Positions 2,504-20,013 of a stretch of DNA of 20,293 bases are shown one piece after another; positions within the stretch are counted from its first letter, which is position 1, and every line of letters begins with the position of its first letter. The stretch is from a virus. The notes under the pieces are model-generated. The model was not told where the DNA came from and made no database searches. It saw only the letters and a list, made by a program, of their open reading frames with translations. Both the position numbers and the translations under genes were made by a program. The stretch spans positions 1 to 20,293 of IMG/VR virus record IMGVR_UViG_3300043411_000178. One strand, 5' to 3'.

Positions 2504-2800
2504 CTACTCCCCTATTTCTAGACTAGCCTTCATAAACTCGGTGTTGTTGTGGATGTCTTCAAGCATACTAACAAAGTAATCGTTAGAGATACCCGACTCG
2601 CTCTCTGCTCGCTTAACGCAGTCCATCGAAAGTTCGGCTAACTCATTCACTTCATCGAGGATAACCTTTCTCAGACTGAAACAGACGTCATCAGGTAAGA
2701 ACTTATCACAATTAGTCTCCTTGAAGGACAATAGGATAGCGGAGGCTCGCCTGGCCCTTCGGTCGATCGCATCATTCAATTCTTCCGTTAAATCACTCAT
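2504..2800 (-). CDS. Small helical protein of unknown function
   Basis: A 98-residue acidic, probably all-helical protein starting MSDLTEELNDAIDRRARRAS. It contains DDVCFSLRKVILDEVNELAE and no recognisable domain, signal peptide or membrane segment. The ATG overlaps the HNH stop as ATGA, and the stop lies two bases before the next gene. Its place among the tail genes suggests a small virion or assembly protein, but nothing in the sequence shows that directly. Confidence 0.6.
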   Translation of the reverse strand: MSDLTEELNDAIDRRARRASAILLSFKETNCDKFLPDDVCFSLRKVILDEVNELAELSMDCVKRAESESGISNDYFVSMLEDIHNNTEFMKASLEIGE

Positions 2801-3441
2801 CCGTCATACCTTTCAAGAATTTCCTTGGCCCATACTACCAAATCTTCTACACGTTGACCGGCTGGTTGAGTCTTTACCCACAACTCCAAGTTCTCTGGTC
2901 TATTATCGGTACGAACACCATTCTTATGGTGGATATTCTCGCCCTTGACAAGGGGCCTACCGATTGTTTCTTCCATGACTAGGATATGTTCTAAAACATA
3001 TCCCTGCTTACTTGAACGTGGATGATCTGGACAAAGTTCTAGTGTATATCCGGCCGCATTAACAATGTATTGCTTCTTTTTCGGATACGACCTTTTAGCC
3101 AACCCAGTAACCCACCGCTCTGCTGCCCCGCAGGATCTACACATCTTAGATGTTCTAAGCTGCATTGGGCCGTGGCAGCGAGGGCACTCAAACATAGGTC
3201 GATTGTCCATAAACTTCTTACGAGTACAAGGAAGACAATTCCACTTATGTAGAGTTTCAAACTCAACTCCACACGTCTTACAGTCTCGCTTTACTGGATT
3301 AGCAGCCTTAGCGTCTTTATACTGTTGATACCTCCGCTTCGTGCGGATGGCAGTTACTTCCTTCTTACACTTCGCACAACGGGCTTGACCCTTACGATTC
3401 ACTGCCTCGTTAACGTTACATCTTCCACAAATTCTATTCAT
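2797..3441 (-). CDS. HNH homing endonuclease with three zinc fingers
   Basis: A 214-residue protein. Three C4 zinc-finger-like groups come first: C5-x2-C8/C22-x2-C25, C54-x2-C57/C69-x2-C72 and C86-x2-C89/C101-x2-C104. The nuclease core follows: YVLEHILVMEETIGRPL (148-164), then ENIHHKNGVRTDNRPENLEL (168-187), the typical HNH pattern of phage homing enzymes, with H152, H171, H172 and N180. It lies inside the connector/tail gene row and its stop overlaps the next start as ATGA, so the row stays coupled. Its own ribosome site is weak. It is a mobile gene with no expected structural role. Confidence 0.9.
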   Translation of the reverse strand: MNRICGRCNVNEAVNRKGQARCAKCKKEVTAIRTKRRYQQYKDAKAANPVKRDCKTCGVEFETLHKWNCLPCTRKKFMDNRPMFECPRCHGPMQLRTSKMCRSCGAAERWVTGLAKRSYPKKKQYIVNAAGYTLELCPDHPRSSKQGYVLEHILVMEETIGRPLVKGENIHHKNGVRTDNRPENLELWVKTQPAGQRVEDLVVWAKEILERYDG

Positions 3442-8677: not shown

Positions 8678-11365
8678 TCAGTCTGCTTTCTTAGTAATGT
8701 TCCGAGGAGCTTGGCCTTGGCCTTTTCCAGGAGCGGCTCCGCCCCCATTGGACCTACCTCCACCCATTCGACCTACATTCTTAGTATCGGCAGGAGCCTG
8801 ATCAGATCCATCGGGTCCCCCATCCGAGCCGGGAATTCCTTGATTATTGGGATTGATTGTCTCAAAGATGTCGTCCATCCCAGAATCCTTCTCATACTCA
8901 CGCCATCTAGCTTCATCATCTTGATCCATGTCGAACTCAGACAGAAGAGTCTCGCGAGAGATCTCATTCATGGCTCTAAGCTCAATCATGAAGGACGAAT
9001 AGCTTGGGTCGAACTCAAGAGCGATCTTCGAAGGAACGAACCTAAGAGTCGGATCCTCATCTAGGATATCGTTCTTCTCCATAATGCGCTCAAAAAGATT
9101 ACGCTCCAAGGCACGCTTAAGCTGATGGCGTGATGACTCAAGACCCTTACCAATGACTCGGGTAAGATCGCCAGACTTGTCACCCTTGGCCCCGGACGAG
9201 TTACCAGTCCAGAACACAGTCCCATTACGTCTTACAAGCCAGGTAGAATCAGGCGTGGTTGGGCACCAAACCTTGCCGGAGTAGTTAACCCAGTCAAAGT
9301 TCTTGTTGCTGATAGGCGAAGTGAACTCAGACTTCAATAGCGTGGTGGCAATGATAGGGTCCAGATCTCCAACTGGCTTACGAGTTGAGGTTCTAATTGG
9401 ACGACCCGAAAGAACAGCAGCCATCTCAAAGGCTCTCGTGAAGTCAGGGTTGTTGCTGAACATGGAGTTCTTACCACCAGAACGGCAACCGTCGGCATCA
9501 ACGCAAGTCTCAACAAACAAGTCAAGCTGCTTAGACGTCAACGAAGTCAAGAATTCAGGAGTAGGAACCTTATCAGGGGATACGGTATCCAGAAGAGAAG
9601 CGATGAACTCAGACTTTACAGCGAAATCCCTATTAGCCCCCGTTCCCCATTCGTTCCACTTGCCATCCGTGCCAGGTTCCCCAAAAAGGGTACCGCACAC
9701 GTTCCGAATTCTGTCACAAAGGGTCGGGTTCGCAGTTTCACTTTGAGACACAATCCTTCTCTCCCACGCCAACCCCCTGCTGTGGACGTAGCCTTCGGTC
9801 ACGTACCACGCAACAAACTCAACGAACTCATCCGAGAACGGTGAAATCACTGGAGCATCATGCGGTGCAGAAAGAGGAATACGTGAAGCAGTGTTCAATG
9901 TTTCCGAAGTCTTCCACATGTACCGAGTGCCATCTTGCTTTGTGAACCAACGGTGGTTCGGGGTAGACAAAGAGGAGTGGGACGCCGACTCCATTGAGAG
10001 CATCTTTCCATCATAATCAAATACATTAACCGCCTGCAGATCTTGCCAATGCGATCGCTGAGTGGCGGGATCCATTGTGAGGACTCGTTCACCCTTCTGC
10101 AACTGATCGTAGGTCTTCCACCCAGCAGAGGTCATAACCTCAGCATCAGGAGTCAAACAGTAGTTACCTGTCATGAGGATTCGATATAGACGTGCAGTTA
10201 GACGAGCATCAATCGTGTTATACTGCTCAGGCTTCAGAGTTGTATCAGTGCTTGGCGTGACGATCTCAATCTTCAATCGGTGATCACCAACAATAAGGGG
10301 CATACGTGCGAGCGAACGGGCATAGCCCTTCAGTGCATTAACTTCAGCAGGAGTAGCAGGACGCTTGTCCGTACCCTTCGTGATCACAATGATGAAGTTC
10401 GTAGCTGCAATCAGGTGGGTTCGATCTCGTTGACGCAGGTTGTTCTTGATGTCCAGAAGCTCAAACACGCTCTTAAGACGAACGTTTGCAAACTTCTGGT
10501 ATCCAGACTTAGTATCTGTATGACGCCACACGGACTCAGGGTTAAGAAGATAGAAGCTAGACGTTCCACCAACTGTACTGATTCCCATGTCAGCAAGCTG
10601 GTTTCTCTCAGACTGAGTAGGCTCGTACTTCTGAGTAATGATCTGCTTGATGATGAGGTCTTCTTCTTCACCTGCGAGAACCTTGTCGATTCCTAGAGAC
10701 TCCGAAGCGTCGGGCATGTAGAGAAGCTTCTCCTTGCCAAACCAGAACATACCGCAAGGTACGACCTTCATAGGGTCGAGCATGGTGATCCCGAGAGGAA
10801 CTTCCAAGCCAGTGAAGGTCTTCTTCTTCTTCTTGCCGGTGTCAGTCTTGCCACGTACCTTGAAGTTCTTGGTGCCCCACCAAATAGCAACGATAACCTG
10901 AGAGTAAGTAAACATCTCACGCCACATCTCACGCATACGAGAATCAAGATCTACCGTCTTGGCGATCTGATTCCAGATGTCTTCCTGATCTTGGTCTTGT
11001 AAATCGAACTTCATCTTTGAGAAAGCCAAAGACTCAGTAGTCTCCACAACGCCGGATACAACATCATCTGAAGCAACAGCATCGAACGCTACTTGGAATT
11101 GATCATATACGCTACCAGGCGTAAGATAACGATCACGGTTGAATATGCCGCCCAGTCTACGGGAACCAGAGTTGGCCTGCAGATCCGTGGCCCATTGTTG
11201 GATGGCGGCGACCTCGGGCGAATCGTAGATAGCCTTATATACATCAAGAGGGTCGACCTCGACGCCAGTATTATTGACGATCTCTGCAGATTTAATAGTT
11301 CGATCGACAAATTCCTCTACGGGCTCAGCCGAAGTCTCTAGATCAGGTCCGCTGCTACTCATCAT
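8678..11365 (-). CDS. Portal protein interrupted by an intein
   Basis: An 895-residue precursor. Residues 1-402 and 723-895 form a 575-residue portal extein; residues 403-722 are an intein. The N-terminal part has IFNRDRYLTPGSVYDQF and the helical stretches of portal rings, and later residues (LLDIKNNLRQRDRTHLIAATNF) resemble the portal stem/wing region of phages with long portals. The extein C-terminus, from about residue 840, is low-complexity and rich in Gly, Pro, Asp and Asn. The portal forms the dodecameric ring at the packaging vertex and docks the terminase; its place after terL and before the protease and scaffold supports the call. The joined extein reads MTGNYSSGAKGDKSGD across the insertion site. 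Two ATG codons open the ORF; the first shares a base with the previous stop. Confidence 0.85.
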   Translation of the reverse strand: MMSSSGPDLETSAEPVEEFVDRTIKSAEIVNNTGVEVDPLDVYKAIYDSPEVAAIQQWATDLQANSGSRRLGGIFNRDRYLTPGSVYDQFQVAFDAVASDDVVSGVVETTESLAFSKMKFDLQDQDQEDIWNQIAKTVDLDSRMREMWREMFTYSQVIVAIWWGTKNFKVRGKTDTGKKKKKTFTGLEVPLGITMLDPMKVVPCGMFWFGKEKLLYMPDASESLGIDKVLAGEEEDLIIKQIITQKYEPTQSERNQLADMGISTVGGTSSFYLLNPESVWRHTDTKSGYQKFANVRLKSVFELLDIKNNLRQRDRTHLIAATNFIIVITKGTDKRPATPAEVNALKGYARSLARMPLIVGDHRLKIEIVTPSTDTTLKPEQYNTIDARLTARLYRILMTGNYCLTPDAEVMTSAGWKTYDQLQKGERVLTMDPATQRSHWQDLQAVNVFDYDGKMLSMESASHSSLSTPNHRWFTKQDGTRYMWKTSETLNTASRIPLSAPHDAPVISPFSDEFVEFVAWYVTEGYVHSRGLAWERRIVSQSETANPTLCDRIRNVCGTLFGEPGTDGKWNEWGTGANRDFAVKSEFIASLLDTVSPDKVPTPEFLTSLTSKQLDLFVETCVDADGCRSGGKNSMFSNNPDFTRAFEMAAVLSGRPIRTSTRKPVGDLDPIIATTLLKSEFTSPISNKNFDWVNYSGKVWCPTTPDSTWLVRRNGTVFWTGNSSGAKGDKSGDLTRVIGKGLESSRHQLKRALERNLFERIMEKNDILDEDPTLRFVPSKIALEFDPSYSSFMIELRAMNEISRETLLSEFDMDQDDEARWREYEKDSGMDDIFETINPNNQGIPGSDGGPDGSDQAPADTKNVGRMGGGRSNGGGAAPGKGQGQAPRNITKKAD
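9200..10159 (-). other. Portal intein with LAGLIDADG endonuclease and mixed class signature
   Basis: Encodes 320 residues, from CLTPDAEVMTSAGWKTYDQL to VFWTGN, with Ser as the next extein residue. Position 1 is Cys, as in class 1 inteins. Block B is STPNHRWFT, with Thr, His and also Trp at B:12. Block F is KVWCPTTPDSTWLV, with Cys at F:4. The last residues are WTGN, with Thr two before Asn and Gly in place of the usual penultimate His. The endonuclease motifs are FVAWYVTEGYVH (115-126) and LFVETCVDADGC (214-225). Cys1 together with the Trp-Cys-Thr triplet leaves the splicing class open. Confidence 0.9.
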
Positions 11366-11725: not shown

Positions 11726-12754
11726 CTACCATCCTTCAAGGAAGTCATCGTACATTGGGACATCAATTACATCTTCTTGAGCCTGATTGCCAAGAAGCTT
11801 CTCAATCGGATATTGCTTCCATGCCAAAGCGGCCATGCGGGCGGCGTCGAGAACGTGGAAGTTTCCAGAAGAGTATCTTCTCTTCTTTCCGTACATATCC
11901 ATATCCGACTTTACAACCTGCATCTGCCCTTGGAAAGAAGCGAGCAGAGAATCGTCGAATGGCAGCCAGATGCGACCTTGATCCACCATCGTCCTAAGAA
12001 CGTCAGTGGCGTATATCTCAACGATAGCTTCGACTGCAGCTTCGTCTGCTGGATCATCAACCATTTCGTCGAAATCAACCCGTTCATCGAACCCGACTAC
12101 GATCTTAGAGCCAAACTTGTATCCTCGGATCTTCTCAACATAACCAACCGCAGCATCCTGCATGTCTTGGAACAGAGGAAGTCCGTTACCGGTAGCATCC
12201 ATTCCGAAACTTCTCATACCAGGGAAGTTCTTGAACAACCAAGAGATGACTCTCACTTGATCACTTGCCTTAACACGAACAAGCTGAACACGTGCAAGAA
12301 GCCTAAGGTAAGACTCTCCATCCGCAGGAACCTTCTTGCCAAACTTCTCCCGAAGCTTCTTTTCAGCCGCGTCCATCTGACACTCACCGAAGATGAGGAT
12401 CTCAGATGGATCGTTGGTGTAGCCTACGTCCATACCTCCCCAGAAACTCTTAATGGCTGAGTTAGGAACAGGAATGTGACGGGACAGCACAGACTCAACG
12501 TCACCGCCTGCATCATTGATGATCTCGGCAGTGATCCTAGTTTTGTTATACTCGTCACTGTTGTAGTCCGACTCGTTCTCAGTATCAATGCAGTTATGGA
12601 CAAGGACAGGCTTTTCCCCTGCATAGAACGAGGGATGTCCCTCTACCGTCAGGTCGTAACATAGGACATGATCTTTTCCACCACTGAGCTTGTTGAATTC
12701 ATCACTTCCATATTGGAGAACCTCAATACTGTCCACCCTTGAGATCTTAGCCAT
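11726..12754 (-). CDS. terL: Large terminase nuclease half, starting with a C-terminal split intein
   Basis: A 342-residue precursor: 54 residues of C-terminal split intein, then 288 residues of TerL beginning CIDTENESDYNSDEYN. The RNase H-like nuclease domain shows its acidic motifs in order: GGMDVGYTND (D109), FGMDATGNG (D186) and NFHVLDAARMAA (H300, D303). It cuts the DNA concatemer at the start and end of packaging and must be joined to the ATPase half by trans-splicing, leaving Cys at the junction. Spliced together, the three exteins total 68 + 202 + 288 = 558 residues, a normal TerL length. The ATG at 12754 lies inside the endonuclease gene and has only a moderate GAGAG site upstream. 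No other start fits, since the intein motifs begin just downstream. Confidence 0.92.
   Translation of the reverse strand: MAKISRVDSIEVLQYGSDEFNKLSGGKDHVLCYDLTVEGHPSFYAGEKPVLVHNCIDTENESDYNSDEYNKTRITAEIINDAGGDVESVLSRHIPVPNSAIKSFWGGMDVGYTNDPSEILIFGECQMDAAEKKLREKFGKKVPADGESYLRLLARVQLVRVKASDQVRVISWLFKNFPGMRSFGMDATGNGLPLFQDMQDAAVGYVEKIRGYKFGSKIVVGFDERVDFDEMVDDPADEAAVEAIVEIYATDVLRTMVDQGRIWLPFDDSLLASFQGQMQVVKSDMDMYGKKRRYSSGNFHVLDAARMAALAWKQYPIEKLLGNQAQEDVIDVPMYDDFLEGW
12593..12754 (-). other. C-terminal half of a split intein (TerL)
   Basis: The first 54 residues of the downstream terminase ORF, from MAKISRVDSIEVL to VLVHN. Block F is LCYDLTVEGHPSFYAG, with Asp at F:4 as in ordinary class 1 inteins. 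Block G is VLVHN followed by Cys as the first extein residue. It lacks blocks A and B, which are supplied by the upstream ORF ending at 13655. The first 106 bases are also the 3' end of the endonuclease gene in a different frame. Confidence 0.92.
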
Positions 12755-13845
12755 GTGTCTCTCTTTTCATCCTCATCGACAAAGTACTTATGGTTGTCGC
12801 CGTCTACTTCAATGGCGATCATATTATTTACATTCGCTATATCAAGATACATGTATACAACTCCAGACACTTCGCCTAAAGGGGCGCACCAATATTGTGG
12901 TTGCCAGTCAGAGCTGGATCCACCAAGTTCTTGCCAAAGCCTGAACTGAGGAATAGGCAGACCACCGGTTTGAATTGACTGCCATGGGGATTTGACATAC
13001 TCGGGCAATCTTCTAGAAGCGTAGCCACATGCCTTAGAGCAGAACCTTTGCGTTGGGCTGTTCGGCACAAACTGCAATGAGCACTCAACATAGTCGCAAT
13101 CCCTTGAAACGCGCCATTCAGGAGACTTCTGGTTTGCACACTTGGTTCCACAAAACCGAACCTTCTTGGATGTCCTATAGAAGGGATATCCACAACGTTC
13201 GCATTCACAGTATTCCTTGGTCTTGCGAGACGATGGGAGGGTATTCTCCCTAGCCCACGCCCCACTACAATCGCGAGAGCAGAACCGCTTGTTTCTACCA
13301 CTCTCTAATATTTCCCCGCACATCTCGCATTCACGAACCTTACAACGGTCTGGATTGCGAAAGTTATATGCACACTCAGTAGAACAGAACTTAACTTGAT
13401 CGCCGGAGATAGGGATATCACAATACTGACAAGCATCGAATCTTTGACGCGTCTTCTTTGAGTCTGCATTGCATCGGACGCTACAGTACTTCCTCTGATC
13501 CCCCTTGAGGTCCGATCCGCAGGTCAAACAAGCTACTTCCCGCTTCGCCCTAGCGCGAGCATCACGACACCACACAGAACAGTAAGCGGATCCTCGCCCC
13601 ATAATGGGCTCACTACATTCCTTACACCTCTTCTTATTAGCAAGAGATTCCTTCTCACCAAACTTCCTCATACAGCTTCTGCCGCAGAAACGCTTCGCTC
13701 GACTCTTCTCCGGAATCATCAACCCACAATTCTCGCACGTCTTCTGGCGAGAAGAGCTGATCTCCCGGTCGAAGTTCTCCAGCTTGGACCCATCCTCTTT
13801 GGGTGAAAATGGGGTGGTCTGGAGTACAGTAGAGTTCGTTCCCAT
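12649..13845 (-). CDS. Zinc-finger Vsr/EDxHD-like endonuclease between split TerL halves
   Basis: A 398-residue protein. Residues 37-273 hold seven tandem copies of a C-x2-C...C-x3-C module of about 30-40 residues, for example TCENCG...RFCGRSC, ACLTCG...KYCSVRC and ECEMCG...RFCSRDC; in the last copy the first pair is spaced C-x4-C. A nuclease-like domain follows: IPQFRLWQELGG, then MIAIEVDGDNHKYF and DEDEKRDTWLRSQGWTVLRF. E346, D348, H352, R362 and D363 fit the Vsr/DUF559-like fold and the EDxHD endonuclease family reported from split-intein loci. I chose the ATG at 13845 because AAGGTGG lies six bases upstream and because the next in-frame ATG would lose the first zinc-finger cysteines. The gene overlaps the upstream ORF by 191 bases and the downstream ORF by 106 bases. 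It is inferred to be the mobility enzyme of the locus. Confidence 0.85.
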   Translation of the reverse strand: MGTNSTVLQTTPFSPKEDGSKLENFDREISSSRQKTCENCGLMIPEKSRAKRFCGRSCMRKFGEKESLANKKRCKECSEPIMGRGSAYCSVWCRDARARAKREVACLTCGSDLKGDQRKYCSVRCNADSKKTRQRFDACQYCDIPISGDQVKFCSTECAYNFRNPDRCKVRECEMCGEILESGRNKRFCSRDCSGAWARENTLPSSRKTKEYCECERCGYPFYRTSKKVRFCGTKCANQKSPEWRVSRDCDYVECSLQFVPNSPTQRFCSKACGYASRRLPEYVKSPWQSIQTGGLPIPQFRLWQELGGSSSDWQPQYWCAPLGEVSGVVYMYLDIANVNNMIAIEVDGDNHKYFVDEDEKRDTWLRSQGWTVLRFSNMEVMNSTSSVVEKIMSYVTT

Positions 13846-16024
13846 CAACAACCACCTTACAAATAGTGTCATGCTTAGATTCGATGTTGTTCAACACCGT
13901 CCCATATCCAACGGCGTTTGCAACCTTTGAACCTATTTCGACATCTTGGATTGGAGTTGTAATGTCTCCATCCAACGTGAGGATGGGAGTATCCCGAAGT
14001 TGACAGCGCATGAGACGGTGGAGCACGAACAGGGGATTGGTGGCGTCACCGTGCTCACCGAGCACGTTGCGACGATAATCAGGGTCGTCTCTGGAGCCGT
14101 ACTCAGCAATCTTCTTCCTGCGAACAGTATCCGACCATTCTGGCGAGTGCATGGCGTAGATACGGTGAACCGTCCACTCAGTTTTCGGATCCGCGGATCG
14201 CTTGTAGAAGTCGTCCTGAACACCACGGGTTACACCGTGAGCACGCCATGAAGCCCCCGTCATACCTTGACGAAGGGTTTCAATGATCTCGGTCCAACCA
14301 GCGTGTGGGTAGTCCTGAGCCTCATCCTGCTCTAGCCAGATCGGGTGAGTTCCCTTAATTCCACGCCCATCTCTCTGAGGAATCTTGCCCAAGATACGAG
14401 CACCGTTGGCGAAGTTCATGATGAACGGTCGATGCGAAATCCTCGACCTATTCTTCAACAGCATCTCTTGAGCTAACCGTGTAGAAGTGAAGAGTTCTTC
14501 AATAATTCCAGTGATAGGCTGAAGGTGGTTAAGTTCAGGGGCAGTAACAACCATTTCCTGCTTAGGGTACAGGAATGGAAACGCATATGCCCTGAGCTGG
14601 ATGCTCTTGCTATTATGGGTAGGGATCATGGTTTCGCCAACCAAAAACAAACTACTAGGCCCCGACACCCTAATGCAGCGAACCGGAACGGAAGGTACCG
14701 GATCAACAGACTCAACGATTCTGTGGGTCAATTTGGTTCGACTTAGAGGAGATACTTCTTTTACTCTATCAGCTTTTCTCTTAATCTTGAACGGCTGGAT
14801 ATCCAGTGGCTTAAATCCTACCCTCCAAACAATACCAGCATCCACGCCATTACACCTTGCACGCTTTGAGCCAATAAAGGGCTTCTGACCCAGAGATGCC
14901 GCAAGCTCAAAAACGGACCTAGCTAGAAGTTCACTCTTGAATGTAATTTCACAACGGCCGCTTTTGCAGCAATGCCCATCGCTGTCCATGAGACCCTGAA
15001 GTAAACTGAGCCTTTGAGCCTCCGAACCTCTCATGTAAGATGTGGGCACGTGCTTGTTGTTGTGCAGGTTAAGCTTCTTCAGCATTCGATTCAATTCGAA
15101 TCCAACTAGATCCCCACGAATAGGACCACCAGCAGACGCTCTGTATTCACCACGAATAAACTGCGTAATAGAGGAAGGATAAAGGCCAAACTCTTTAGCG
15201 AGATCTCGTAATTCTTCCCCATTCTTGACCCGTATACGAATACTCCTTACATCCCCACTGCTGAGAGAATCCACACGAGGCTTAAATTCAGGATCATCCA
15301 ATACTGGAAGCTCTGTCCATACATCATGAACACCCTTTAGCCTGAGGGCGTATAGAATGTTGCCCTTGAGTTTATCCAAGGAGTATCCTTCAGAGTCTAA
15401 GATCTCTTCTACGTTCTTATAGTCTTCGTCACCGATCGTGAGCATAGCCCCCGCCGAATGACCATCTCCGAGCCAATAGCCAAGCAAATATGGAGACAAG
15501 ATTCCATAATCCTTGTCATCTATAGCAAGGGGCTTGGCAACATCAATTGAAGTTCCAAGAAGATCTTGAGTGGTTACTGTCTTCTTAGACTTGTCCCTAC
15601 GATTTCGGGAATTAACTACCCATTCGTGGTCGGCGTCAGCGATGATTTCAGACCCGTCACTGAATTTGACCTTGAAACAAGGTCGATCATTCATAACATC
15701 GAAGACTTCAAGTACATTAACAGGTTGACCTTGCTCGTTGAAGATAATGTCACCGACACGCAGCTCTCCCATTGTTGTCCAACCCTCTGGAGTTGGTACT
15801 TTCGTCACTGTGTGTAGTGCTTTGCCCACTGAGCGTGAGCACTGGTCAATCTGAAGAGTATCCGAACATCTCCACCACGCCACCTGGTATGGACGAGCGC
15901 GGAAACACCCATCAGTCTCCTCATCGACTGGAGCGTAGAGTGTAAGCTCTGCCAAGTCGATGCCGGATGGATCTTGGGTGATGGCGTACAGAGCGCATTC
16001 AGCGTCTGACAGGTTCTCTAACAT
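13655..16024 (-). CDS. terL: Large terminase ATPase half with class 3 intein, ending in an N-terminal split intein
   Basis: A 789-residue precursor. Residues 1-68 are the N-terminal extein, ending at the Walker A motif (SRSVGK). Residues 69-471 are a LAGLIDADG intein inserted within that motif. Residues 472-673 continue the ATPase: SKSIQL completes Walker A, WLEQDEAQ (563-570) is Walker B with the catalytic Glu, and HGVTRG is a probable coupling motif. The extein stops at NPLFVLHRLMR, and residues 674-789 are an N-terminal split intein beginning CQLRDTPILTLDG. The ORF then terminates, so the nuclease domain is missing from this polypeptide and is encoded separately at 11726-12754. The start lies three bases after the HTH gene with a weak Shine-Dalgarno site. 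After cis-splicing this half would supply the packaging motor ATPase; joining to the nuclease half requires trans-splicing. Confidence 0.92.
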   Translation of the reverse strand: MLENLSDAECALYAITQDPSGIDLAELTLYAPVDEETDGCFRARPYQVAWWRCSDTLQIDQCSRSVGKALHTVTKVPTPEGWTTMGELRVGDIIFNEQGQPVNVLEVFDVMNDRPCFKVKFSDGSEIIADADHEWVVNSRNRRDKSKKTVTTQDLLGTSIDVAKPLAIDDKDYGILSPYLLGYWLGDGHSAGAMLTIGDEDYKNVEEILDSEGYSLDKLKGNILYALRLKGVHDVWTELPVLDDPEFKPRVDSLSSGDVRSIRIRVKNGEELRDLAKEFGLYPSSITQFIRGEYRASAGGPIRGDLVGFELNRMLKKLNLHNNKHVPTSYMRGSEAQRLSLLQGLMDSDGHCCKSGRCEITFKSELLARSVFELAASLGQKPFIGSKRARCNGVDAGIVWRVGFKPLDIQPFKIKRKADRVKEVSPLSRTKLTHRIVESVDPVPSVPVRCIRVSGPSSLFLVGETMIPTHNSKSIQLRAYAFPFLYPKQEMVVTAPELNHLQPITGIIEELFTSTRLAQEMLLKNRSRISHRPFIMNFANGARILGKIPQRDGRGIKGTHPIWLEQDEAQDYPHAGWTEIIETLRQGMTGASWRAHGVTRGVQDDFYKRSADPKTEWTVHRIYAMHSPEWSDTVRRKKIAEYGSRDDPDYRRNVLGEHGDATNPLFVLHRLMRCQLRDTPILTLDGDITTPIQDVEIGSKVANAVGYGTVLNNIESKHDTICKVVVDGNELYCTPDHPIFTQRGWVQAGELRPGDQLFSPEDVRELWVDDSGEESSEAFLRQKLYEEVW
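13658..14005 (-). other. N-terminal half of a split intein (TerL)
   Basis: The last 116 residues of the upstream terminase ORF. Block A is CQLRDTPILTLDG with Cys1. Block B is LYCTPDHPIFT, with the usual Thr-x-x-His (T61, H64). GWVQAGELRPGDQLF follows, as in complete splicing domains. It stops after a charged tail ending YEEVW, without blocks F and G or any endonuclease domain. Its matching C-terminal half is at 12593-12754. The last 191 bases, including the stop, are also read in another frame by the inserted endonuclease gene, so the tail after about residue 54 is dual coded. Confidence 0.9.
14612..15820 (-). other. Class 3-type intein with LAGLIDADG endonuclease in the TerL Walker A motif
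   Basis: Encodes 403 residues. It begins ALHTVTKVPTPEGW, so position 1 is Ala rather than Cys or Ser, and ends IPTHN with Ser as the first residue of the following extein. Block B reads ADADHEWVV, with His at B:10 and Trp at B:12. Block F reads VPVRCIRVSG, with Cys at F:4. Block G has Thr two before the final Asn. This Trp-Cys-Thr set with a non-nucleophilic first residue is the class 3 signature, in which the block F Cys starts splicing. The homing endonuclease motifs are YLLGYWLGDG (111-120) and LLQGLMDSDG (273-282). A predicted helix-turn-helix (about 201-224, ELRDLAKEFGLYPSSITQFI) lies between them. Removing the intein restores SRSVGKSKS, an intact P-loop. Confidence 0.92.
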
Positions 16025-18827: not shown

Positions 18828-19471
18828 CCCGCACCCCTGATGTGATTCCACACGATGGGATGGACAACTGAGTTCCAACCTTGAGGAAGTTGATAGTCCT
18901 TCTTACTCAGAAAAAGAATGTTCTGCTTATACCAAGGCTCAACGTCAGAATTATCCCACGTCAACTTCCTAATGAAATCCGACACATACTTGAACCCATG
19001 AGACTGAAACTTCTCAACCCAATAGTCAGGCCACTGCTCGTTAAGGTGTCCGACGCCCCCCTGACCCGGAATCGCTGCCGAGAACAGAAGGTGATCCGCA
19101 GATCCAGCCACCTGGGCCACGTACGCATCTGCATTATTGGGGTGAACATGCTCCGCTACTTCCAAAGACACTGCCAGGTCCCACTTGCCCTCCACCGGAT
19201 CAAGCGAATCGAAATTGATGGATCCAAACTCAGCATCATCGATCAACAACCTTGATCGGTCCACATACTCCCCATCAAATCCCTTAACCTTGAACCCGTC
19301 CTCTTTAAAGGCTCTCAGCCAAGCCCCCTGTCCGCATCCCCAATCAACCACACTAAGATCAGACACACTCAGATGTTTGTTGAGAGTTTGACGAACAACA
19401 GGAACAATAACCTTAGCGGACTTGTAGCTACCATCATTTATCATGTCAAAAAACTCATCATTGTAAATCAT
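18824..19471 (-). CDS. Class I SAM-dependent methyltransferase
   Basis: A 215-residue protein with a Rossmann-type methyltransferase core. Motif I is VVDWGCGQG (41-49), the usual S-adenosylmethionine-binding glycine loop. FDGEYVD (65-71) supplies the acidic residue after strand 2, and LEVAEHVHP (103-111) is the motif common in small-molecule and sugar methyltransferases. I chose the ATG at 19471: it overlaps the stop of the HNH gene as ATGA, is preceded by AGAAGG at a good distance, and gives the family-like start MIYNDEFFDMINDGSYKSA. An ATG at 19498 in the same frame would add nine residues and also has a weak Shine-Dalgarno site. No DNA-methylase catalytic motif such as DPPY or PC is visible, so the substrate is more likely a sugar or glycan than DNA. 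The flanking glycosyltransferases support that inference. Confidence 0.8.
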   Translation of the reverse strand: MIYNDEFFDMINDGSYKSAKVIVPVVRQTLNKHLSVSDLSVVDWGCGQGAWLRAFKEDGFKVKGFDGEYVDRSRLLIDDAEFGSINFDSLDPVEGKWDLAVSLEVAEHVHPNNADAYVAQVAGSADHLLFSAAIPGQGGVGHLNEQWPDYWVEKFQSHGFKYVSDFIRKLTWDNSDVEPWYKQNILFLSKKDYQLPQGWNSVVHPIVWNHIRGAG

Positions 19472-20013
19472 ACCGTCATCCTTCTGGTTTGTAGCCATTC
19501 GTTCCTACATGTTCGACACAATCGTCTCAAATTGGGATAGGTATATGTGTTCTCGGGAGTGAAAGAATGACCCTTAGTGCAAGCCTCAGATTGAGGACGA
19601 ATAGAACGAGGGATTCGTCGTGAGTTCTCCGCGGGAGTAACCGGTTCTAGATGATCCGGATTTACACAATTGCGAATTCGACATAGGTGATCCAAATGCA
19701 GTTCACTCGACACCGCTCCAACCAAATGCTCATAACCCCACCGATGGGCGCTTGCAACTTTCTTTCCTTGATCATGAAATTGCCCATACCCAGTAGCTTG
19801 AAATAAGCAAGCCGTCCACAACCAACAAGGGCCCAACTCGGGTGCATAGACAGGGATCGGACCATTCTTGTCGACCTTATCCATCCATCTAGACAAAGAA
19901 GATTGACGATCTGTCCTACCCGTCCGCTTAAGCCTTTGATAATGCTTAGAGCACAGACCGCGAGCGATAGCACATAGATCGCAATCCTCCACGGAGCTGT
20001 CATACTGTGTCAT
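19468..20013 (-). CDS. Free-standing HNH endonuclease with zinc-binding motifs
   Basis: A 181-residue protein. An N-terminal segment with CDLC (11-14) and RGLCSKHYQRL (19-29) resembles the zinc-binding start of many phage HNH proteins. A central CWLWT segment (63-67) precedes the HNH core, LDHLCRIRNCVNPDHLEPV (107-125), with H109, N118 and H121 as likely metal and catalytic residues and C111/C116 as extra ligands. A C-terminal C145/H149...C166-x2-C169 group looks like a second zinc site. The gene sits inside a glycosyltransferase/methyltransferase cassette and shares ATGA overlaps with the gene before it and, if the internal start is used, with the gene after it. It is therefore probably a homing endonuclease that entered an operon without breaking it. 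A role in DNA packaging, known for some terminase-linked HNH proteins, is less likely here. Confidence 0.85.
   Translation of the reverse strand: MTQYDSSVEDCDLCAIARGLCSKHYQRLKRTGRTDRQSSLSRWMDKVDKNGPIPVYAPELGPCWLWTACLFQATGYGQFHDQGKKVASAHRWGYEHLVGAVSSELHLDHLCRIRNCVNPDHLEPVTPAENSRRIPRSIRPQSEACTKGHSFTPENTYTYPNLRRLCRTCRNEWLQTRRMTV

What the first reader, a model, noticed from the sequence alone, without database searches (positions are those of the whole stretch)
11726..16024. Large terminase gene fractured by a split intein with an endonuclease gene in between
The sequence shows TerL encoded by two ORFs. The upstream one ends in intein blocks A and B (Cys1, T-x-x-H), and the downstream one begins with blocks F and G (ending VHN, then Cys). 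A separate endonuclease gene lies between them. Fractured genes with split inteins and Vsr-like endonucleases are known from environmental phage sequences (Dassa and colleagues), so the principle is established. Here a key packaging enzyme depends on it, and the split falls between the ATPase and nuclease domains. The exteins add up to a normal 558 residues.
Basis: partly seen in the sequence, partly recalled or inferred. Interest (0 to 1): 0.9.

Follow-up and report, generated by a model that had tools for sequence, protein, structure and literature searches.

The report
Phage packaging motor split by intein
A phage's DNA-packaging enzyme is encoded in two separate genes whose products should stitch themselves together, and a selfish DNA-cutting gene sits between them in another reading frame; about 100 related loci suggest that such gene breaks arise from inserts in which one stretch of DNA encodes two proteins at once.

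Summary
TerL is encoded by two ORFs (13655-16024 and 11726-12754, minus strand). The first ends in a 116-residue N-intein, the second starts with a 54-residue C-intein, and the splicing motifs are present. Twenty related TerLs read straight through the junction, so the halves restore a continuous 558-residue TerL.

The ORF between the halves is a Vsr-like endonuclease (DUF559; nearest folds I-Bth0305I and 3HRL) with at least six zinc fingers. It lies in the +1 frame and overlaps both intein halves. The locus matches the 'fractured gene' architecture of Dassa et al.; split TerL inteins are already known (AceL-TerL, GOS-TerL).

Less expected is the family. In 100 loci with a homologous endonuclease and both intein halves, the endonuclease is always in the +1 frame. 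In 94 the intein frame stays open across it: in the 75 tested, 15,286 codons hold no stop where 583-926 are expected. Six are broken; in the five tested, stops are at the neutral level (window: 31 seen, 32.6 expected). Fractured genes therefore look like decayed dual-frame inteins. This may overlap a 2025 preprint that I could not read.

The parts
15821..16024 (-). TerL extein 1 (68 aa), ends in the Walker A motif SRSVGK
   Evidence: alignment to intein-free TerLs
14006..14611 (-). TerL extein 2 (202 aa), rest of the ATPase domain, ends ...LHRLMR
13658..14005 (-). N-intein half (116 aa: 86-residue Hint core plus a 30-residue acidic tail), Cys1, TPDH
   Evidence: own profile 89.5 bits; Pfam Intein_splicing 7e-7, PT-HINT 1e-5
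12649..13845 (-). Vsr-like (DUF559) endonuclease with six CxxC...[FY]CxxxC zinc fingers; most likely start ATG at 13845 with AAGGTGG upstream (ORF open from 13872)
   Evidence: Pfam DUF559 7.7e-14; model and Foldseek to I-Bth0305I and 3HRL; start scan; zinc fingers
13655..13845 (-). overlap of N-intein ORF (frame 0) and endonuclease (+1)
12649..12754 (-). overlap of endonuclease 3' end (+1) and C-intein 5' end (frame 0)
12593..12754 (-). C-intein half (54 aa), ATG start with AGAGAG upstream, ends VLVHN
   Evidence: TIGR01443 3e-4, above its cut-off; own profile 40.7 bits
11729..12592 (-). TerL extein 3 (288 aa), nuclease domain, starts CIDTEN

Best explanation
The TerL gene was invaded by a mobile intein whose homing endonuclease lies in the +1 reading frame inside the intein. 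In this phage the intein frame has since filled with stop codons across the endonuclease, so TerL is made as two polypeptides (extein 1 + Walker A intein + extein 2 + N-intein; C-intein + extein 3). The intein halves should associate and splice in trans through Cys1, the block B His, the block G His-Asn and Cys+1, joining LHRLMR to CIDTEN; the Walker A intein splices in cis; the product is a 558-residue TerL. The endonuclease is translated from its own internal start, cuts intein-free terL alleles at this junction and so spreads the insert. Shown by sequence: anatomy, motifs, restored TerL, frame relations, neutral number of stops, fold of the nuclease. Inferred: trans-splicing, cutting site, homing, direction of evolution from dual-frame to fractured.
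For: Gap-free junction against GX15bay and 20 other TerLs. Intein motifs and profile hits. Nuclease family and fold. In all 100 loci with both intein halves the homologous endonuclease is in the +1 frame; 94 keep the intein frame open, 75 of them tested with 0 stops in 15,286 codons against 583-926 expected; five fractured ones, window included, sit at the neutral number. On the tree the fractured state needs two changes, the window apart from a clade of five. The C-intein's first strand, ISRVDSIEVL, is homologous to W-x-R-V-x-S-V-E-I in unbroken relatives and overlaps the endonuclease C-terminus, so it cannot be a frameshift product. An unbroken relative folds as a Hint domain with a disordered loop exactly over the endonuclease.
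Against: No splicing, cutting or expression data. The window is a very divergent member (end branch 2.98), so its place on the tree is unsure, and its +1 phase alone has a 1 in 9 chance. No relative with an intein at this TerL site, broken or not, was found, so the intermediate step in TerL is not seen. The root is not inferred, so the direction from dual-frame to fractured rests on numbers and parsimony.
Confidence: 0.87

Rival explanations
1. Sequencing or assembly indels broke an ordinary intein with an in-frame endonuclease domain.
For: N- and C-halves are in the same frame and the endonuclease in the other, so two compensating indels would join everything.
Against: A frame switch at the 3' side cannot keep both the DUF559 C-terminus and the first strand of the C-intein, because they share the same 106 bases. 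The +1 phase is the same in 100 independent records, including finished GenBank phage genomes. Stops in the intein frame are at the neutral number.
Confidence: 0.03
2. The two TerL parts work as separate, unspliced subunits (gene in pieces, as reported for a phage ribonucleotide reductase with an inserted endonuclease gene) and the intein remnants are dead.
For: The split falls between two folded domains, where a two-subunit enzyme could work.
Against: All nucleophiles and assisting residues are kept in both halves, Cys+1 included; in a dead intein some would be expected to be lost.
Confidence: 0.06
3. A programmed +1 frameshift at the end of the N-intein makes an N-intein-endonuclease fusion instead of internal initiation.
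For: The strict +1 phase in all loci would also follow from a frameshift mechanism, and the zinc fingers begin right where the N-intein core ends.
Against: A start codon with a Shine-Dalgarno-like sequence (-6 kcal/mol or better) lies near the end of the N-intein in 64% of loci against 6% of single control ATGs (this compares the best of several candidates with single ATGs, so it is inflated). Common descent explains the fixed phase as well.
Confidence: 0.12
4. Fractured genes came first: a free-standing endonuclease invaded an existing split intein, and dual-frame inteins arose later by loss of all stops.
For: The tree is unrooted.
Against: It would need removal of about 8-12 stops per locus many times over, against two losses of the open frame in the other direction.
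Confidence: 0.1

Closest known systems
Fractured genes with split inteins and Vsr-like endonucleases (Dassa et al. 2009, doi 10.1093/nar/gkp095; known to me by citation and memory, text not held)
   Same: Conserved phage enzyme gene, split intein, endonuclease gene between the halves, Vsr-like nuclease fold.
   Different: Host gene is TerL; the endonuclease overlaps both halves in +1; a second cis intein in the same gene; six zinc fingers. Whether Dassa's loci share the +1 phase could not be checked.
AceL-TerL and GOS-TerL split inteins (PMC11766414)
   Same: Natural split inteins in phage TerL from environmental DNA; Cys+1.
   Different: Those are split near the N-terminus of the intein (N-halves of 25 and 37 aa, C-halves of 104 and 115); this one is split at the usual endonuclease site (116 and 54 aa). 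Insertion sites not compared.
I-Bth0305I homing endonuclease (PDB 3R3P) and 3HRL
   Same: Top structural matches of the nuclease domain; 3HRL profile E 1.9e-9.
   Different: 3R3P is titled a homing endonuclease and 'mobile intron protein'; 20-25% identity; no zinc-finger array in those structures.
ShiLan element, out-of-frame HNH endonuclease in a phage methylase (PMC11855218)
   Same: Endonuclease hidden in a second frame of an unbroken host ORF.
   Different: No intein there, HNH nuclease, third frame; here the frame 0 product is a real intein.
TerL inteins of mycobacteriophages (PMC5050341)
   Same: Walker A insertion between Lys and the next residue is the classic site TerL1-a.
   Different: None of those is described there as split.

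Membership tests
Fractured gene with split intein (Dassa) | Conserved enzyme gene in two ORFs that restore one protein | tested here: met
   gap-free alignment across the junction
Fractured gene with split intein (Dassa) | N-intein and C-intein halves with intact splicing residues on separate ORFs | tested here: met
Fractured gene with split intein (Dassa) | Free-standing Vsr-like endonuclease gene between the halves | tested here: met
   DUF559, Foldseek I-Bth0305I and 3HRL; note overlap with both halves
Fractured gene with split intein (Dassa) | Trans-splicing activity | not testable with these tools
   needs co-expression
Dual-frame intein with +1 endonuclease (as seen in 94 loci) | Endonuclease in +1 frame relative to both intein halves | tested here: met
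Dual-frame intein with +1 endonuclease (as seen in 94 loci) | Intein frame open across the endonuclease | tested here: not met
   31 stops in the window: it is a broken relative, not a member in function
AceL-TerL/GOS-TerL group | Atypical split, N-half of about 25-37 residues | tested here: not met
   N-half 116 aa, C-half 54 aa
Class 3 intein (Walker A insert) | No Cys/Ser at position 1 and the W/C/T triplet in blocks B, F, G | tested here: met
   Ala1, HEW, VRC, PTHN read by eye; no class-specific model was run

The most novel reading that the evidence does not exclude
There is a widespread class of phage inteins in which the same DNA encodes a splicing domain with a disordered loop in frame 0 and a Vsr-like homing endonuclease in frame +1; the fractured genes that supplied many natural split inteins are decayed members of it. 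The window shows the decay in an essential packaging gene.
Probability: 0.6. Interest if true: 0.85.

Novelty: new variant of a known kind. Interest (0 to 1): 0.72.

Why it matters
Natural split inteins are widely used protein-joining tools, and how they arise is unsettled. The comparison gives a concrete route: an endonuclease encoded in the second frame of an intein keeps the intein frame open only while the two halves must be one chain; once they work in trans, stops accumulate and the gene is fractured. It also shows that an endonuclease gene goes unannotated in 40 GenBank phage genomes, because only the intein-containing helicase is called. In the window the essential TerL depends on both a trans-splicing and a cis-splicing event.

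Tried and rejected
Direct searches of IMG/VR with the window's TerL C-part and endonuclease found no relative; profile queries were needed. In-frame endonuclease domain: rejected by frame analysis. Intron: no Rfam match. Promoter and terminator scans near the locus are at the shuffled level. Complementary charge of the halves as a sign of a tuned split intein: not found (window -13 and -3). The idea that the loop of the unbroken inteins is under its own selection was dropped: its identity between relatives (mostly 33-54%) is only slightly above the 33% of the same, untranslated frame in fractured pairs, while the endonuclease frame keeps 54-87%. Most of the 80 bacterial-genome hits were ordinary DUF559 genes without intein halves (24 had at least one half). 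Gosselin et al. 2025 (doi 10.1101/2025.01.02.630785) and Dassa et al. 2009 could not be read.

Full report
What is there. On the minus strand TerL is encoded by ORFs 13655-16024 (789 aa) and 11726-12754 (342 aa). The first holds extein 1 (68 aa), a complete 403-aa intein placed between GK and S of the Walker A motif, extein 2 (202 aa) and a 116-aa N-intein. The second holds a 54-aa C-intein and extein 3 (288 aa). The window is a whole 20,293-base IMG/VR virus record, classed as a possible fragment.

The junction is real. The joined TerL matches the TerL of phage GX15bay over 98% of its length (41% identity by tblastn, E 3e-136), with no gap at LHRLMR|CIDTEN. Twenty IMG/VR relatives read through this point without an insert, and 15 have Cys at the position that would be +1. 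The split lies between the ATPase domain and the nuclease motif GMDVG. TerLs of this family are an intein hot spot: seven loci (L013, L015, L016, L017, L112, L114, L115) carry complete inteins, all in one open frame and at other sites.

The intein halves look competent. Cys1, TPDH, the block F Asp and His, VHN and Cys+1 are present. Pfam Intein_splicing reaches 7e-7 on the N-half (below its gathering score), TIGR01443 passes its cut-off on the C-half, and the closest solved inteins are PI-MtuI, gp41-1 and NrdJ-1. Nothing here shows splicing.

The endonuclease. ORF 12649-13872 has a DUF559 nuclease domain (7.7e-14) and six CxxC...[FY]CxxxC zinc fingers. The predicted nuclease domain (pLDDT above 90 over much of 310-407; the rest of the model is poor) matches I-Bth0305I and 3HRL best (E about 4e-3, probability 1.00; 3HRL by profile 1.9e-9). 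The ORF is in the +1 frame relative to both intein halves, which share one frame. It overlaps the N-half by about 191 bases from the likely start at 13845 (AAGGTGG upstream) and the C-half by 106. In the 3' overlap the same bases encode the end of the DUF559 domain and the first strand of the C-intein, so no single frame shift could join them.

The family. A profile of the endonuclease found 80 further IMG/VR loci (of 211 relatives) and 80 bacterial-genome loci; phage records supplied five more types, and 40 GenBank phage records carry it. Scanning three frames with intein profiles, with no constraint on frame, placed the endonuclease in +1 in every locus with an intein half. Of 100 loci with both halves, 94 keep the intein frame open across the endonuclease and six do not. 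In 75 open loci there are 0 stops in 15,286 codons; permuting synonymous codons of the endonuclease predicts 583, uniform synonymous choice 926, and the third frame holds 991. Some of these loci are near-duplicates, so the sum overstates independence, but most single loci are also significant. The five fractured loci tested have stops at the permuted expectation (window 31 against 32.6). The distribution is two-state: constrained to zero, or not constrained at all.

What the two frames encode. For an unbroken relative (L027, identical to the CP-T1 region), the model of the intein frame has residues 1-92 and 301-355 at high confidence with Hint-like strands, and residues 94-300, which lie over the endonuclease, at about 40. 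Between relatives the endonuclease frame is 54-87% identical and the intein loop mostly 33-54%, about as low as the untranslated frame of fractured pairs. So the loop seems to be selected only to stay open. Hosts are almost all helicases, with the insert at motif II DE|C; the window is the only TerL among them. Tetrasphaera phage TJE1 TerL has an intein overlapped by an HNH endonuclease in +2; there the open frame alone is not significant (P 0.21).

Where the fracture came from. On a quick tree of intein plus nuclease the fractured state needs two changes: a clade of five helicase loci next to unbroken L067, and the window on its own long branch. The simplest reading is that fracture is derived from the dual-frame state and happened at least twice. 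The window's exact place is unsure.

Known and not known. Fractured genes with Vsr-like endonucleases (Dassa 2009), TerL split inteins (PMC11766414), Walker A TerL inteins (PMC5050341) and an out-of-frame endonuclease in a non-intein insert (PMC11855218) are established. Full-text searches found no report of out-of-frame endonucleases in inteins, but Gosselin et al. 2025, titled with 'non-canonical architecture', is cited in PMC11855218 beside overlapping reading frames and could not be read. I therefore call this a new variant of a known kind.

Noticed in passing
14612-15820: Complete class-3-like intein (Ala1, LAGLIDADG signal) in the TerL Walker A motif, so one TerL needs both a cis and a trans splicing event. 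Among its closest phage matches is an intein in the terminase of Stenotrophomonas phage SOVA965.
   Followed up: partly
9200-10159: The portal gene (8678-11365) carries a 320-aa intein (C...FWTGN|S), resembling by eye the second TerL inteins of L016, L112 and L115: related inteins sit in two different packaging genes.
   Followed up: partly
L020:3000-3911: Tetrasphaera phage TJE1 TerL intein is overlapped by an unannotated HNH_3 endonuclease in the +2 frame, a second type of dual-frame intein.
   Followed up: partly
L019, L022, L023, L024, L025: GenBank phage genomes annotate only the intein-containing helicase; the +1 DUF559 endonuclease gene is unannotated (40 records by tblastn).
   Followed up: yes
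2797-3441 and 19468-20013: Two more free-standing HNH endonuclease genes in the window (HNH_3): the phage is rich in selfish endonucleases.
   Followed up: no
L013, L015, L016, L017, L112, L114, L115: TerL relatives carry complete inteins at several further sites (P-loop, G|THP, Walker B region, ATPase end, nuclease domain), up to two per gene.
   Followed up: partly
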